From the IMG/VR virus record IMGVR_UViG_3300008954_000187, positions 1-30,248 of that record: a stretch of 30,248 nt of DNA; one strand, 5' to 3'. The DNA is from a virus. Below are positions 14,698-20,619 of this stretch, piece after piece. Within the stretch, counting starts at the first letter, position 1. Every line of letters begins with the position of its first letter. The notes beneath the pieces were generated by a model. That model made no database searches, was not told the origin of the DNA, and saw nothing but the letters and a program-made list of their open reading frames with translations. The translations under genes were made by a program, and so were the position numbers.

Positions 14698-17600
14698 CTA
14701 CTGTGCATACGGCGACAAATACTTCTTGCCCGTGGGCGAATTCAACGCATCAATAACGATCTGATCGATCTTCTTCTGTCCCACGTGAACATTAATCACA
14801 ATTGGTTTCCCATCGGTGGGAGAACCTCCGGCCGCGGGGGCCCCTTGGCCGGCTTTTTGCAGCATCTTGCCCATCTGCATCATGGGACTAAGACTATTTA
14901 GTTTCTCTATCATATTATCGACGGCGCCACCGGGCTTTCCGCCAATAACGACATCATTTTTATCAATGGGGGTTACCGCGCCCGTCCCTGATTGATAAAT
15001 AAAGTCTTGCACCGGAGCGTTTTGGTCGACACTCCCGAGAATCTGCTGCTCGGCATAACCAGTGGCACCGGGATCTGCAACAATGCCCATCTTGCGGCCC
15101 ATAACAACGGCGCCCATCGCCTTTTCTATGGCAAACTGGAGTGCTGCCGGGAGCCCAGCGTAAAGTTCGTCCCAAGCCTGCTGGAAGCCGTCCATCAAAG
15201 CCACAACAATCTTATGAGAGTCGGCCTTAATCTTCTCTGGGAGTCCATCGAAATTCATCTTGTCTTTCATTTGCTGCCACAAGGTCGCTATCTGGTCCAT
15301 GGCTGCAGTCATCCCGCTCACCAGAGGATCTATTCTTAGTATGATATTCGTCAAGGTGGTATCCCACGCCTGAAGAACACCCTCGGTGGTCTTGGCCCAT
15401 ATAGTCTTGATGATGTGGGTGGCTTCGCCCCACTTGGCATTAAGAACCCCAATAGTTGTATCCCATTTAGCCTGGATGGCGGTCGTAGTTCTGTCCCAGA
15501 GGCTGCTAATAGCATCTGTGGTGGAATTCCATGTGTCGGAAAGAGTTTTGGCTGCGGACGCGCCGGCCTCCGCCGTCGCACCAAACCCAGCTTTGGCTCC
15601 TCCCGAAACGAAGTCCCAGGCCTTTCTGGCTCCTCCCGATATTGCATTCCAAACTGCGATGGCGCCCGAAGATACCAGTTCCCAAGCTTTGGCCAAGCCG
15701 GCCCCAAGCAAGTCGAAGATGCTCAAAAGGCCTTGAATTCCACCACTGAACATCTCTTTTATAGATGTCCACACTCCGCCGGCGCCTTCTTTGAGGCGCT
15801 CCCAAGCCTTGACACCAACATCAACCAACGAGTTGAAGCTGTTTTTAATGACGTCCCATCCCGCCATGAACGCTTCCCCAATCGCTGCCGGGACGGAGGC
15901 TCCTGAAGCCCGGAAGTCGTCGAAGGTCTGTTTCAAAGCACCAAAGACGTCTTTGATGAATCCCCCAATCTTTGAGAACACCCACTTCACTGCGGCCCAT
16001 ATCCCTTTCATAGCAGCGGCGAATCCGCCCCATATCGTCTTCCCTATACCTGCTACCCATGACCCAAAGGCGGTGATCTTCTCCTTAATCTTAGTCCAAA
16101 TCTCAACAAGGTTGTCGAACATCTTGTCGTGTATCCAGTCGGAAAGTTTCTTTAGCGGCTCAGTAACATATTTATCAAACAAGCCGCTCAAATCAAGCTC
16201 GGGAATTTTAGCGCCGAGCCATCCAAATAAGAAGTTAAATATCCAAATAAACCCATTGACCAACTCATCAACAGCATTGAGACCGATACGTATGGGCAAC
16301 AAGAACAGCGCGTCGATCATCCAGAACATGAAGTCTGTGAAAAAACCCTTGAAATCGCCGCCCAATAATTTCTTGAACGTGGCGATAAAGTCCTTAATTT
16401 TGTTCCACAACGGCTCAATGGCGCCAATAACAAGCGTAATCGCCCACCCAATATACGGGATTTTAGTTACGACCACTCCCACCAACCTCAAGATCGCCGC
16501 AAGGCCTGAACCAATAAACTTGAAAAACCTCAAAATTTTGATATTCTTAAAACCCTTGAGCACGTCCATCATGCGCGATAGGAACCCGGCACCAGCGCCG
16601 GCGCCTTTGCCAATACCCAACATAGTCTTCAGCCCCTTGATGGCTTCTTTGGGTCCCTTCAGCCAGTTCTTGGGGTTGAGCGCGTCTTTTAATTTTGTAC
16701 CAATCTCGGTTATCTTTACGCCCAGATCTTTGAGCGCGCCAATTCCTGGGATCTTGCCGACGAGTGCCTTTGCGCCGCGGCCAATGGCGCCGGCACCACG
16801 AGCAATCATACCTGGAGCGCGAGTGCCCTTCGGAACGAACTGCCCTCCCTTGTAGAATTTGCCCGCAATGGTCATGCCCCCTTTGGGCGCGCGGGTAATA
16901 AGTTTCCCTCGGGTGATGGTCTGTGCCATGCTATTGAGCCCCTTGAAGGGAGCCTTCATGAAAGACCAGAGCATCTTCGGCAGCGATTTAAGAAGCACTG
17001 CAATTGCTGTGAGACCGGTGACCACACCAAGTTTCTGCCACCAACTTAGATCATTAAACCAACCTATGGCGGCAGTGATCTTGCCTGTAAGCCATGTGAG
17101 AGCCTCGTGAATCTTGGGGAGCCACTTTCCAATATCGAGGGCCATCGCCTTCATCGCTTGATTGGCCTTCTCCTGCAAACTTTGGGCTTCTTTGGCCCGT
17201 TTGGCGAGTTCGCCCTTTTTAAGGGCCTCCATCTTTTGCTGTTCTGTTTCGGCACCGAATAACTTGCGGGCTTCATCGACACTCACCCCCAAAGTACTTG
17301 CAACCATCTTTTGCTCATACTTGCCCATAGTCTTGAAATTCATTCCAGACTGTTTCATGGATCGTTTGAGGATCTCAACCCTCTCACCTTCCTCAGCATT
17401 GAGCATATCAATGGAATTGAGGTATGGGCCACCCATAATAGCATTGAGTTTACCGACCGCTTTGCCGGCGCCCTCAAATGTATCAAACTGTTCCACAACG
17501 CCCAGTAATTGATCGACAGAAAGACCGGTGCTCTTGGACTGGGCAGACAATTTCTTAAAGGTGCCCATTATATTCTTACCATAGAACGCTAGCTTCTTAG

Positions 17601-18609
17601 AAACTGTGGCGAAGTCTTTGGCAACAAGATCGAAGGGTCGCTTAAGACCATCTGCAACGCCGGCGACCTGACGCATCACTCCCTCCACCTCGCCAAAGCC
17701 AAAGCCTAGGTTTTTAGTGGCTTCATTAGCAATCTCAGAAGTCGTCTGTGCCGAAACCCCCAATTCCTGCAAGTAGGCGGTGGTTGATCTTAAGGCCGAT
17801 TGCTGCGCCGGGGAGGCCTTGGTGTAATCCACCATTGTACGATAGAGTGCTTCATGTGCTTGAAACATCTCCTTGGCATCCACACCGGATGAGCGCATCG
17901 CATATGCCTGGTCCTCGATGGCGCGCGTCGACGCATAGGTGGCGCCAGTAGACTTGCGGAAGGAGGCACTAGCATTGTCTATCTCCATCCAGACACCGAT
18001 AGTCATTTCAATGACCTTGCTGAAAAGAGATATTAGAAGATTAATGGGGTTGAGGGCCCTGAGAATCCCTTTGCCAAATGCCTTAAAGCCGCCGGGAGTA
18101 GCTAGCTTCTTCATGAAGTCGCCTAATGCGGTATTGACCCCCAGTAGACTGGCAGTCGTTTCATAGCCCTGAGTCTCTAGGTCTTCGAGGGTTTGGTGTT
18201 CTTCTTCAAGGGCTGCTTTAACGCGTCGAGATTGCTTAACTTTAACGTTTGCTGTCTTCTCTGCATCTAGACGGTCCTTTTCGTATTCTTCGATGCGGTC
18301 CTTGAGCGCCTGCTTGCGCGCTTCGGACAGGGTTTTGGTCTCCTTTAGTTCTTTATTAAGCGCGGAGATCTTTTTGTCGATTTGGTCGATCTCTTTCTCT
18401 GCCTGGGCGACCTCCAGCTGAGCCTGCCTATAGGCTTCCATGCGCTGCGGCCCAAGGCGCGCCTTAAAAAGCTCGATTTCTGCTTGTTGGGTTTCTCTTA
18501 TGGTTTTGAGATGGTCTTGAAAAACCTTGTTGCGTTCAGTGATGGCTTCAGAATCAGCCATGGCGTCGGCGCGCAAGTCAACATCTAGATCTTTTTCGTC
18601 AACGGCCAT
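14698..18609 (-). CDS. Tail tape measure protein (1303 aa)
   Basis: This is the largest helical protein of the tail cluster and sets tail length. Residues about 23-146 form a long charged coiled coil. Hydrophobic, membrane-like helices follow at about 188-211 (LLISLFSKVIEMTIGVWM), 530-548, 693-730 (VVVTKIPYIGWAITLVIGAI at its end) and 758-800. Such segments are usual in tape measures and may act in DNA passage through the inner membrane. From about 823 to 1085 the protein is tryptophan-periodic, with six Trp at exact 11-residue steps near the end. The C-terminus (MQMGKMLQKAGQGAP, then a short beta segment) is probably the hub-binding end. I see no transglycosylase or peptidase active site. 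Standard helical rise (about 0.15 nm per residue) predicts a tail of up to about 190 nm, longer than T4's. AAGGTGAGG precedes the ATG. Confidence 0.92.
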   Translation of the reverse strand: MAVDEKDLDVDLRADAMADSEAITERNKVFQDHLKTIRETQQAEIELFKARLGPQRMEAYRQAQLEVAQAEKEIDQIDKKISALNKELKETKTLSEARKQALKDRIEEYEKDRLDAEKTANVKVKQSRRVKAALEEEHQTLEDLETQGYETTASLLGVNTALGDFMKKLATPGGFKAFGKGILRALNPINLLISLFSKVIEMTIGVWMEIDNASASFRKSTGATYASTRAIEDQAYAMRSSGVDAKEMFQAHEALYRTMVDYTKASPAQQSALRSTTAYLQELGVSAQTTSEIANEATKNLGFGFGEVEGVMRQVAGVADGLKRPFDLVAKDFATVSKKLAFYGKNIMGTFKKLSAQSKSTGLSVDQLLGVVEQFDTFEGAGKAVGKLNAIMGGPYLNSIDMLNAEEGERVEILKRSMKQSGMNFKTMGKYEQKMVASTLGVSVDEARKLFGAETEQQKMEALKKGELAKRAKEAQSLQEKANQAMKAMALDIGKWLPKIHEALTWLTGKITAAIGWFNDLSWWQKLGVVTGLTAIAVLLKSLPKMLWSFMKAPFKGLNSMAQTITRGKLITRAPKGGMTIAGKFYKGGQFVPKGTRAPGMIARGAGAIGRGAKALVGKIPGIGALKDLGVKITEIGTKLKDALNPKNWLKGPKEAIKGLKTMLGIGKGAGAGAGFLSRMMDVLKGFKNIKILRFFKFIGSGLAAILRLVGVVVTKIPYIGWAITLVIGAIEPLWNKIKDFIATFKKLLGGDFKGFFTDFMFWMIDALFLLPIRIGLNAVDELVNGFIWIFNFLFGWLGAKIPELDLSGLFDKYVTEPLKKLSDWIHDKMFDNLVEIWTKIKEKITAFGSWVAGIGKTIWGGFAAAMKGIWAAVKWVFSKIGGFIKDVFGALKQTFDDFRASGASVPAAIGEAFMAGWDVIKNSFNSLVDVGVKAWERLKEGAGGVWTSIKEMFSGGIQGLLSIFDLLGAGLAKAWELVSSGAIAVWNAISGGARKAWDFVSGGAKAGFGATAEAGASAAKTLSDTWNSTTDAISSLWDRTTTAIQAKWDTTIGVLNAKWGEATHIIKTIWAKTTEGVLQAWDTTLTNIILRIDPLVSGMTAAMDQIATLWQQMKDKMNFDGLPEKIKADSHKIVVALMDGFQQAWDELYAGLPAALQFAIEKAMGAVVMGRKMGIVADPGATGYAEQQILGSVDQNAPVQDFIYQSGTGAVTPIDKNDVVIGGKPGGAVDNMIEKLNSLSPMMQMGKMLQKAGQGAPAAGGSPTDGKPIVINVHVGQKKIDQIVIDALNSPTGKKYLSPYAQ
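15364..15531 (-). repeat. 33-bp / 11-residue tryptophan repeat in the tape measure gene
   Basis: Six tryptophan codons (complement of cca at 15364, 15397, 15430, 15463, 15496 and 15529) fall about every 33 bases, and the protein segments between them are exactly 11 residues (for example WDTTIGVLNAKW). The DNA is diverged between units, so the period is held at the protein level. Eleven-residue periodicity of aromatic residues is known in other tape measure proteins. Confidence 0.9.
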
Positions 18610-18991: not shown

Positions 18992-19189
18992 TTATTGTTT
19001 GCGCCGCTTTGGCGCCTTGGACTCTTCCATTGCCTTGGCTTCTTTTTCATACTCCTCTACCATTCGTTGGATAAACCAGCGTCTCAGCTGAACGGGTAAG
19101 TTGTAAGCTTCAAAAAATGACCAACCGCCGTGGTGTTTTAATACGAAAAACTCTTCATAAACTTGGCGCTGATACTCACTCGTCAGGCC
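18992..19189 (-). CDS. Frameshift-encoded C-terminal extension of the gp26-like protein (65 aa)
   Basis: This reading frame, +1 relative to the gp26-like gene, encodes 65 residues from GLTSEYQRQVYEEFFVLKHH to ...APKRRKQ. It contains the compact pattern GGWSFFEAYNLPVQLRRWFI followed by a charged helix with a lysine-rich end. The pattern resembles small proteins found beside gp26-like genes in other T4-like phages. The frame is closed upstream by TAA at 19205-19207 and has no ATG, GTG or TTG before the motif; the first ATG is at residue 43, after the conserved part. A CTG at its second codon has no ribosome-binding site. Expression by frameshift at the seven-T run (19190-19196), giving a 348-residue fusion (349 if -2), is the simplest reading. 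A non-AUG start or a homopolymer length error are alternatives. Confidence 0.68.
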   Translation of the reverse strand, partial: GLTSEYQRQVYEEFFVLKHHGGWSFFEAYNLPVQLRRWFIQRMVEEYEKEAKAMEESKAPKRRKQ

Positions 19190-20039
19190 AAAAAAAGTCG
19201 GCCGTTAACGGCACAGGGATCCTCCCCCCGAAGTCACATTCGGTACATACAAAATCTTGGGTCAGGTCAACGTTAGGCATAACTGCCTCATACGCATTCC
19301 GAATTTCTCGAGAAGTTTTTGTAGGGAGAGCGTCAATAAATTGCGCAATATGAGAATCATCCGTGAAGCCGGCCACCGAAGCAAGAACAAGTTTCAATTG
19401 AGCTGTAATATTAGTATCGGGAAGCTTAAGCTTCTTTCTCTTTTCTTTGCTTTTGGCCCACTTGGTTTCGTCTTCACCAGTTAAAAGCCTAACTTCAACG
19501 GCAAAATCGATAGACTTCAATTGTATCTCAAAGTTTCCGTTGGGCAGAAGCTGAACATTTTCTGGAAGTTCGTGCCTGTCGACCAAATCAAGCTCTTCTA
19601 GATTAAAAGAGTGATCAAGTGTTTCGGTACATGCTGGGCATGAAACCCTGGTGGAATAGTCGGCGCCGAATCCTGTGATTCGTGATGCCACAATAATTGC
19701 ATTTTTATCTCCCACCAACAGATCAGAAATCTTGATGCTTTTGTCGACCAAGACTGATTGAAGCATTCTATCGACCGCCAAACCTTTTTTAAGAAGCGCT
19801 TCAGATGTAAGAATGTCCTCTTCTTTAGCTGTCATGTGTCGAATTTCAACAGTTTCCGCCTGGTGAAGAGGGTGTCCCTCCCCATAAAAGCGTCCCCTGC
19901 TGGGTAGTTCTACAAATGCAGTGGGTGTTACAAAGGAGAATAGATCTCCGCTCTCGTTAGTGGTGGCTGGCGCAGGACTTCCTTGGTCCGGTACTGGAGT
20001 GCCTGAGAGTGCGCGCTCCAGATTATTTCGTTGTGCCAT
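19176..20039 (-). CDS. T4_baseplate-family (gp26-like) tail assembly / hub protein
   Basis: This 287-residue protein matches the gp26-like family of T4-type phages: VELPSRGRFY (43-52), VEIRHMTAKEEDILTSEALL (64-83) and a run beginning DRMLQSVLVD. Two cysteine pairs, C134-P-A-C137 and C265-T-E-C268, probably form a zinc ribbon. The acidic, disordered first 30 residues precede the conserved part. The 0-frame ends ADFFWPDE just after a run of seven T. In T4, gp26 belongs to hub assembly; here the gene lies between tube and tape measure genes, the usual place of tail assembly chaperones, which bind the tape measure during tube growth. A second product fused to the downstream frame is likely. The ATG is preceded by AAGAAGG. 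Confidence 0.8.
   Translation of the reverse strand: MAQRNNLERALSGTPVPDQGSPAPATTNESGDLFSFVTPTAFVELPSRGRFYGEGHPLHQAETVEIRHMTAKEEDILTSEALLKKGLAVDRMLQSVLVDKSIKISDLLVGDKNAIIVASRITGFGADYSTRVSCPACTETLDHSFNLEELDLVDRHELPENVQLLPNGNFEIQLKSIDFAVEVRLLTGEDETKWAKSKEKRKKLKLPDTNITAQLKLVLASVAGFTDDSHIAQFIDALPTKTSREIRNAYEAVMPNVDLTQDFVCTECDFGGRIPVPLTADFFWPDE
19190..19196 (-). other. Slippery heptamer (seven T) for +1 or -2 frameshifting
   Basis: In the gp26-like frame the codons read GAC TTT TTT TGG. A tRNA-Phe on the second TTT can re-pair fully after moving +1 or -2, since all positions are T, and either shift enters the downstream frame. A 12-base perfect palindrome (19201-19212, GCCGTTAACGGC) lies just upstream. 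The 0-frame stop follows four codons later. Confidence 0.6.
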
Positions 20040-20058: not shown

Positions 20059-20619
20059 TTAGATACCAAAGCTCTTAATTGGAGCCGCAGGTGAAGCGTT
20101 AATGTACTGAGCCCAATCATACCTCATACCAATCTCGATATTAAGGAGTTCGTCGCCGGCGTAGTCCAAGTCACCGAAAGTACACGACTTAATAAAGGCG
20201 TTTTTGAGAACCCAGGTGCCAATTGTCTTACCTTCTCCATCAAGTTCTCTGATCTTGACAGTTCCAAGACCATCGTCGACGGAGTTCTTTTTATTGATGG
20301 TGCCAACTACGCCATCTGCCGCGGCGGCGCCCTGCCTCATGGGGAACAAATAACCAGATTTTTCTAGAGCGTCTAAAAGAAGAGCTTGCCCATCTGGGTT
20401 GATCGCATTTATCAGCGTAATAGTTACCTCATTCCAAGTAAGAGAACCAGGATAGTAATACGTATTTCCTAAAAACTTGTGCTCAGTCTCAGAAACCTCA
20501 AAGGAGGGCTTTGTAACAGTTTTAGCCAAATAGGGCTCGAAGTCGTCGATTTGGCTCATGGTAACCAAAAATCTATGTTGTCTTTTTGGTTCGCTAGCGG
20601 GGTCTGTCCAAAATGGCAT
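20059..20619 (-). CDS. Tail tube protein (gp19-like)
   Basis: This 186-residue protein (T4 gp19 is 163) polymerises into the inner tail tube. The start MPFWTDPASEPKRQHRFLVT, the strand YLAKTVTKPSFEVSETEHKF and the segment YYPGSLTWNEVTITLINAIN match the tail-tube fold of the gp19/T4-type family, including the conserved beta-hairpin arm and the W-x-E-V/I-T-I-T strand. The C-terminal strand pair around LRIEIGMRYDWAQ-like residues (NIEIGMRYDWAQYI) closes the barrel. It lies directly after the sheath gene, the normal order in contractile phages. An AAAGGAG box precedes the ATG in a 68-base gap that has no clear promoter. Confidence 0.9.
   Translation of the reverse strand: MPFWTDPASEPKRQHRFLVTMSQIDDFEPYLAKTVTKPSFEVSETEHKFLGNTYYYPGSLTWNEVTITLINAINPDGQALLLDALEKSGYLFPMRQGAAAADGVVGTINKKNSVDDGLGTVKIRELDGEGKTIGTWVLKNAFIKSCTFGDLDYAGDELLNIEIGMRYDWAQYINASPAAPIKSFGI

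What the first reader, a model, noticed from the sequence alone, without database searches (positions are those of the whole stretch)
18992..19212. Programmed +1 (or -2) frameshift joins the gp26-like gene to an ORF with no start codon
The gp26-like frame ends TTT TTT TGG CCT GAC GAG TGA. The 65-residue downstream frame begins within the T run, is closed upstream by TAA at 19205-19207 and has no ATG, GTG or TTG before its conserved part (FFEAYNLPVQLRRWF). Slipping +1 or -2 on seven T preserves Phe pairing and yields a 348- or 349-residue fusion. Established knowledge: in lambda-like, Mu-like and many other tailed phages, the gene pair between tube and tape measure encodes tail assembly chaperones expressed by frameshift (-1 in most, -2 in Mu). 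This pair has exactly that position. I know of no such report for the gp26 / T4_baseplate family, though I cannot search.
Basis: partly seen in the sequence, partly recalled or inferred. Interest (0 to 1): 0.85.

Follow-up and report, generated by a model that had tools for sequence, protein, structure and literature searches.

The report
Plus-one frameshift in tail-assembly chaperone gene
In this uncultured phage, ribosomes very probably slip forward one base near the end of a tail-assembly gene to add a 65-residue extension, a trick already known in tailed phages and in relatives of this gene, but here done in the opposite direction (+1 instead of -1) and kept that way across a large group of environmental phages.

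Summary
The gp26-like ORF (20039-19176, minus strand) ends GAC TTT TTT TGG CCT GAC GAG TGA; a 65-codon frame in +1 register runs through its 3' end with no start codon. It is not chance or a homopolymer error: of 192 non-redundant gp26-family loci, 157 keep the downstream domain in the +1 frame, and all 157 have an in-frame UUU followed by a pyrimidine in the overlap. The slip codon shows no synonymous variation; 41 of the 157 sites lack the seven-T run, and eight read TTC TTT TGG, which allows +1 but not -2 slippage. Best explanation: gp26 is the short tail assembly chaperone (TAC-N) and +1 slippage at UUU-Y makes the long form (TAC-NC). The gene lies between tube and tape-measure genes, and the predicted fold's best solved match is the HK97 chaperone (weak). 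The idea is not new for this family: Vladimirov et al. 2022 identified the T4-like chaperone genes, and a later paper cites it for poly-T -1 signals. What differs here is direction: +1 in this clade, -1 in cyanophage-type relatives, separate genes in T4, own ATG in two nested loci. I could not read the 2022 paper, so whether +1 groups are unreported is unknown.

The parts
19176..20039 (-). gp26-like gene (PF12322 T4_baseplate, phrog_150), 287 aa; proposed short tail assembly chaperone TAC-N
   Evidence: Pfam E 2e-13; PHROG E 1.2e-16; predicted structure pLDDT 87, best PDB match HK97 tail assembly chaperone 2ob9
19188..19196 (-). shift site TTT TTT TGG (0-frame codons); slip codon TTT 19193-19191 plus T 19190, A-site codon TGG 19190-19188
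   Evidence: second Phe codon TTT in 47/47 window-clade representatives; in-frame TTT-Y in 157/157 +1 representatives
19176..19178 (-). 0-frame TGA stop, 2 codons after CCT; 1 or 2 codons after CCT in all 47 window-clade representatives
19205..19207 (-). TAA that closes the +1 frame upstream
18992..19189 (-). TAC-C extension in the +1 frame (GGC CTG ... CAA TAA), 65 codons, no usable start codon; weak DUF6760 similarity
20059..20619 (-). tail tube gene (phrog_4542), upstream neighbour
14698..18609 (-). tape measure gene (phrog_167 E 7e-25), downstream neighbour after one small ORF (18944-18621)

Best explanation
The locus makes two chaperones for the tape measure protein from one start codon. 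Most ribosomes read gp26-like TAC-N (287 aa) and stop at TGA. A fraction pause with Phe-tRNA on UUU in the P site and UGG in the A site; the tRNA slips forward one base onto UUU (UUC in other sites), and translation continues GGC CUG ... to give a 348-residue TAC-NC whose C-terminal helical domain should link tape measure and tube subunits, as lambda gpG/gpGT do. Shown from sequence: the architecture, the +1 register, the fixed slip codon, coding conservation of the extension, synteny. Inferred: that slippage happens, its rate, the exact slip codon in TTT CTT TGG variants, and the chaperone function.
For: +1 register with homologous extension in 157 of 192 non-redundant loci and in-frame TTT-Y in all 157. 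No start codon from opening to +45 nt in 44/157, no ATG in 96/157, and no conserved ATG position (at most 11/157); 25/47 window-clade representatives have no ATG/GTG/TTG at all before the conserved part. The slip TTT is fixed while none of about 78 to 111 other conserved degenerate columns per clade is; TTT is 76% of Phe codons elsewhere in these genes. TTC TTT TGG, TTT CTA TGG and TTC TTT CGT sites permit +1 but not -2. The extension evolves as coding sequence. Cultured phages share it unannotated: Microcystis phage Mel-JY01 and Flavobacterium phage immuto. Position between tube and tape measure. T4 gp26 and gp51 share PF12322; the +1 and -1 extensions align by profile (E 4e-6, probability 87%). 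Best PDB match HK97 chaperone 2ob9, Z 5.4, next 3.4.
Against: No protein or reporter data. No conserved downstream RNA structure and no consistent Shine-Dalgarno element near +1 sites, so the stimulator is unidentified. CCT after the slip is fixed too, but that is explained by overlap with the +1 Leu codon. The 2ob9 match is weak by Foldseek (E 0.82) and Z 5.4 is in the middling range. Loci are phylogenetically related, so the counts are not independent events.
Confidence: 0.88

Rival explanations
1. A -2 slip (as in Mu) rather than +1 reaches the same frame.
For: Same register; in the 114 TTT TTT TGG sites -2 also preserves Phe pairing.
Against: In TTC TTT TGG (8 loci) and TTC TTT CGT a -2 move puts Phe-tRNA on TCT; TTT CTT/CTA sites also mispair at -2; all these sites allow +1 on UUU-Y.
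Confidence: 0.06
2. Transcriptional slippage on the seven-T run makes a mixture of mRNAs.
For: Seven T are present in the window and in most relatives.
Against: 41 of 157 +1 loci lack the seven-T run and have runs of only three to six T; common descent makes one mechanism likelier.
Confidence: 0.03
3. The small ORF is an independent gene translated by coupling or from a non-canonical start.
For: L104 and L109 have an ATG 2-5 nt after the gp26 stop and L091 a TAATG overlap, so separate translation can evolve.
Against: Those exceptions are in the -1 register; L104/L109 are nested inside the +1 clade. In the +1 clade no start position is conserved, many loci have none, and the slip codon is frozen.
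Confidence: 0.04
4. Sequencing or assembly error in the T run, the true gene being one continuous frame.
For: Homopolymers are error-prone.
Against: Dozens of independent assemblies plus cultured-phage genomes share the register; non-homopolymer sites do too.
Confidence: 0.01

Closest known systems
T4-like tail assembly chaperones gp26/gp51 (Vladimirov et al. 2022, pmid 34826709; known here only through PMC10885494 and PMC12846349; that the pair is gp26/gp51 is from memory plus the Pfam result)
   Same: Same protein family (PF12322), short and long chaperone forms, poly-T signals reported in some T4-like groups.
   Different: T4 uses two separate genes; the frameshift signals cited are -1. Here the shift is +1 at UUU-Y.
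Cyanophage/Rhizobium/Aeromonas phiAS5 gp26 loci (examined here)
   Same: Homologous TAC-N and TAC-C, overlapping frames, TTT TTC site in most.
   Different: -1 frame at T TTT TTC; the cyanophage-type loci have a GGAG-like motif 8-11 nt upstream in 25/26 and usually an ATG 2 nt after the stop; none of this in the +1 clade.
Lambda gpG/gpGT (Atkins 2016 review, PMC5009743)
   Same: Position before the tape measure gene, two products sharing an N-terminus, extension of the minor form.
   Different: Lambda shifts -1; sequence homology to lambda was not tested here.
+1 tail chaperone frameshift of archaeal myovirus HSTV-2 (called very likely +1 in PMC5009743)
   Same: Direction and gene position.
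   Different: Unrelated lineage; site not compared.
+1 sites prfB (CUU U), SPP1 gp17.1* (CCC UAA), influenza PA-X (UUU CGU)
   Same: P-site tRNA re-pairs one base forward; some loci here read CTT T or TTT CGT.
   Different: Here the A-site codon is usually UGG, not a stop; prfB and PA-X are from general knowledge, SPP1 from PMC6316719.

Membership tests
T4-like gp26-type tail assembly chaperone (TAC-N/TAC-NC) | TAC-N belongs to the gp26 (PF12322/phrog_150) family | tested here: met
T4-like gp26-type tail assembly chaperone (TAC-N/TAC-NC) | Gene lies between tube and tape measure genes | tested here: met
   window; immuto
T4-like gp26-type tail assembly chaperone (TAC-N/TAC-NC) | C-terminal extension homologous to TAC-C of T4-like relatives | tested here: met
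   profile comparison E 4e-6, probability 87%
T4-like gp26-type tail assembly chaperone (TAC-N/TAC-NC) | Fold of a known tail assembly chaperone | tested here: inconclusive
   best solved match 2ob9 (HK97), Z 5.4 over 73 residues, Foldseek E 0.82
T4-like gp26-type tail assembly chaperone (TAC-N/TAC-NC) | Two proteins in a fixed ratio, bind tape measure, absent from virion | not testable with these tools
   needs protein data
-1 programmed frameshift (X XXY YYZ) chaperones | Extension in the -1 frame at a -1 slippery heptamer | tested here: not met
   -1 frame reads TTG GCC TGA; extension is in +1
+1 programmed frameshift genes | P-site codon that can re-pair one base forward, conserved, followed by a slow or stop codon | tested here: inconclusive
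   conserved TTT-Y met; slowness of UGG and slippage itself not tested; no stimulator found

The most novel reading that the evidence does not exclude
Within one homologous chaperone family, the way of making the long form has changed between clades: -1 frameshifting at T TTT TTC, +1 frameshifting at UUU-Y with UGG waiting and no stop codon or Shine-Dalgarno stimulator, separate start codons, and separate genes (T4). The +1 form is fixed in a large clade of environmental and a few cultured phages and is unannotated there.
Probability: 0.7. Interest if true: 0.58.

Novelty: new variant of a known kind. Interest (0 to 1): 0.48.

Why it matters
It gives a clean natural series (+1, -1, own ATG, separate genes) for asking how phages set the ratio of two chaperones that determine tail assembly, and a conserved bacterial-virus +1 site whose A-site codon is UGG rather than a stop. 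It would also correct annotation: 'baseplate hub' gp26-like genes in these phages are probably tail assembly chaperones, and the extension is missed or given a false start in the cultured Microcystis and Flavobacterium phages.

Tried and rejected
Shine-Dalgarno or downstream stem-loop as +1 stimulator: not found. eCIS/DUF6760 lead: 20/31 extensions match DUF6760 weakly (best E 3.5e-5), but DUF6760 was not found in 296 genomes of the order of a Flavobacteriales MAG nor in the controls, so it was not followed further; the tool warns that this shows no absence. Profile search of solved structures gave only a de novo protein and eRAP-NC at weak E. Longest-open-frame classification misassigned six loci (L052, L059, L079, L080, L314, L343) to -1; replaced by homology.

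Full report
OBSERVATION. The sequence is as described. On the minus strand the gp26-like ORF runs 20039-19176 and ends GAC TTT TTT TGG CCT GAC GAG TGA; the second frame opens after TAA 19207-19205, has no ATG, GTG or TTG before its conserved part, and ends at 18992. The register is +1 (equivalently -2); a -1 shift meets TGA after two codons.

SURROUNDINGS. Upstream are tail sheath and tube genes, downstream one small unmatched ORF (18944-18621) and the tape measure gene. The gp26-like protein hits PF12322 (E 2e-13) and phrog_150. T4 gp26 (208 aa) and T4 gp51 (249 aa) both hit PF12322; gp51 is a gp26-like domain plus a C-terminal extension.

CONSERVATION IN CLOSE RELATIVES. A search of viral contigs with the gp26-like protein, using peptide patterns that lie outside the shift site, gave 80 loci. 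All 78 complete loci (window included) have the small ORF in the +1 register at 53-87% identity. In 47 non-redundant representatives the second Phe codon is TTT every time, while TTT makes up 76% of Phe codons elsewhere in these genes; the 0-frame stop follows CCT by one or two codons; 25 of 47 have no start codon before the conserved part. The naive probability of 47 TTT is 2e-6, which ignores relatedness.

WIDER RELATIVES. Further scans seeded with a megaphage, Flavobacterium phage immuto, Streptococcus phage GXN1, cyanophage Sf-FS3 and Microcystis phage Mel-JY01 bring the set to 339 loci, 192 non-redundant. With the extension identified by profile HMM, 157 are +1 and 35 are -1. Every +1 representative has an in-frame TTT followed by T or C in the overlap: TTT TTT TGG 114, TTT CTT TGG 25, TTC TTT TGG 8, CTT TTT TGG 3, TTT CTA TGG 2, TTT TTT TAC 2, and one each of TTT CTA TTC, TTC TTT CGT and TTT CTT TAC. 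Phe-tRNA can re-pair at +1 in all of them; at -2 it cannot in the TTC TTT or TTT CTT/CTA types. Hence +1, and hence no dependence on a seven-T homopolymer (41 of 157 lack it).

SYNONYMOUS CONSTRAINT. In each of three clades the slip TTT and CCT are fixed, while none of about 78 to 111 other conserved degenerate columns is (GAC is also fixed in one clade). CCT and GAC overlap +1 codons, which explains them. The third base of the slip TTT is not part of a +1 codon, so its fixation speaks for the site itself (inference). In the extension, differences at codon positions 1/2/3 are 0.34/0.18/0.59.

THE -1 RELATIVES. Cyanophage-type, Rhizobium and Aeromonas phiAS5 loci have the homologous extension in the -1 frame, most with TTT TTC. 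Cyanophage-type loci add a GGAG-like motif 8-11 nt upstream (25 of 26) and usually an ATG two bases after the gp26 stop. The profiles of +1 and -1 extensions align (E 4e-6, probability 87%). L104 and L109 carry the extension with its own ATG; they sit inside the immuto-like +1 clade, so the shift was probably lost there. In the tree, the -1 rows with T4 gp26/gp51 (SH-aLRT 100) and 54 +1 rows plus the two ATG loci (98) form two groups; several long branches (L090, L091, L092, L194, T4 gp51) are placed unreliably.

STRUCTURE. AlphaFold2 gives pLDDT 87 for TAC-N. The best solved match is the HK97 tail assembly chaperone 2ob9 (Foldseek E 0.82, probability 0.44; VIA-align Z 5.4, rmsd 2.8 over 73 residues, next entry Z 3.4). 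This is suggestive, not proof. Viral predicted structures match T4-like baseplate hub proteins.

STIMULATORS. No conserved downstream structure (mean z -0.02 to -0.42) and no consistent Shine-Dalgarno-like motif near the +1 sites (15 of 152 loci). What makes ribosomes pause is open; a slow UGG decoding step is only a guess.

WHAT IS KNOWN. Lambda-type chaperone frameshifting is reviewed in PMC5009743, which says T4 was the exception and calls HSTV-2 very likely +1. Vladimirov et al. 2022 then identified T4-like chaperone genes; PMC10885494 reports that some T4-like phages carry a short gene and a separate fused gene, and PMC12846349 cites the work for poly-T -1 signals in T4-like TAC-N genes. 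The paper itself is not held. So gp26 as a chaperone with a shifted extension is known; the +1 direction over this clade may or may not have been seen there.

VERDICT. Real, conserved, best explained as +1 programmed frameshifting that makes a long tail assembly chaperone; a new variant of a known kind. Not shown experimentally.

Noticed in passing
L104, L109: Immuto-like loci in which the chaperone extension starts at its own ATG 2-5 nt after the gp26 stop, in the -1 register, with a decayed or altered shift site; natural controls for loss of frameshifting.
   Followed up: partly
L086, L195-L274 (cyanophage-type loci): gp26 genes carry T TTT TTC, a GGAG-like motif 8-11 nt upstream in 25 of 26 representatives, and usually an ATG two bases after the stop: both -1 shifting and independent start look possible.
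   Followed up: partly
L091 (LR756511.1): 595-kb uncultured phage with the extension apparently starting at an ATG overlapping the gp26 stop (TAATG).
   Followed up: no
window:18992-19189 and relatives: 20 of 31 chaperone extensions match Pfam DUF6760 weakly (best E 3.5e-5), hinting at what DUF6760 does.
   Followed up: partly
window:18621-18944: 107-aa ORF between the extension and the tape measure gene with no Pfam or PHROG match.
   Followed up: no
window:20688-23618: Tail sheath protein of 976 aa matching phrog_23 (496-position profile) over almost its whole length, so it probably carries large insertions.
   Followed up: no
L082 6734-6970 (PP395634.1): Microcystis phage Mel-JY01 annotation gives the extension a TTG start upstream of the shift site; the overlapping gene pair is better read as one frameshifted gene.
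   Followed up: yes
L090 (PQ819873.1): Streptococcus phage GXN1 gp26-like gene ends near TTC TTT CGT C, resembling the influenza PA-X +1 site; the extension is in the +1 frame but its placement in the tree is unsure.
   Followed up: partly
L355 (WTJH01000026.1): Only genome-collection relative of the window's gp26 is a contig in a Flavobacteriales MAG, a weak hint at the host group.
   Followed up: no
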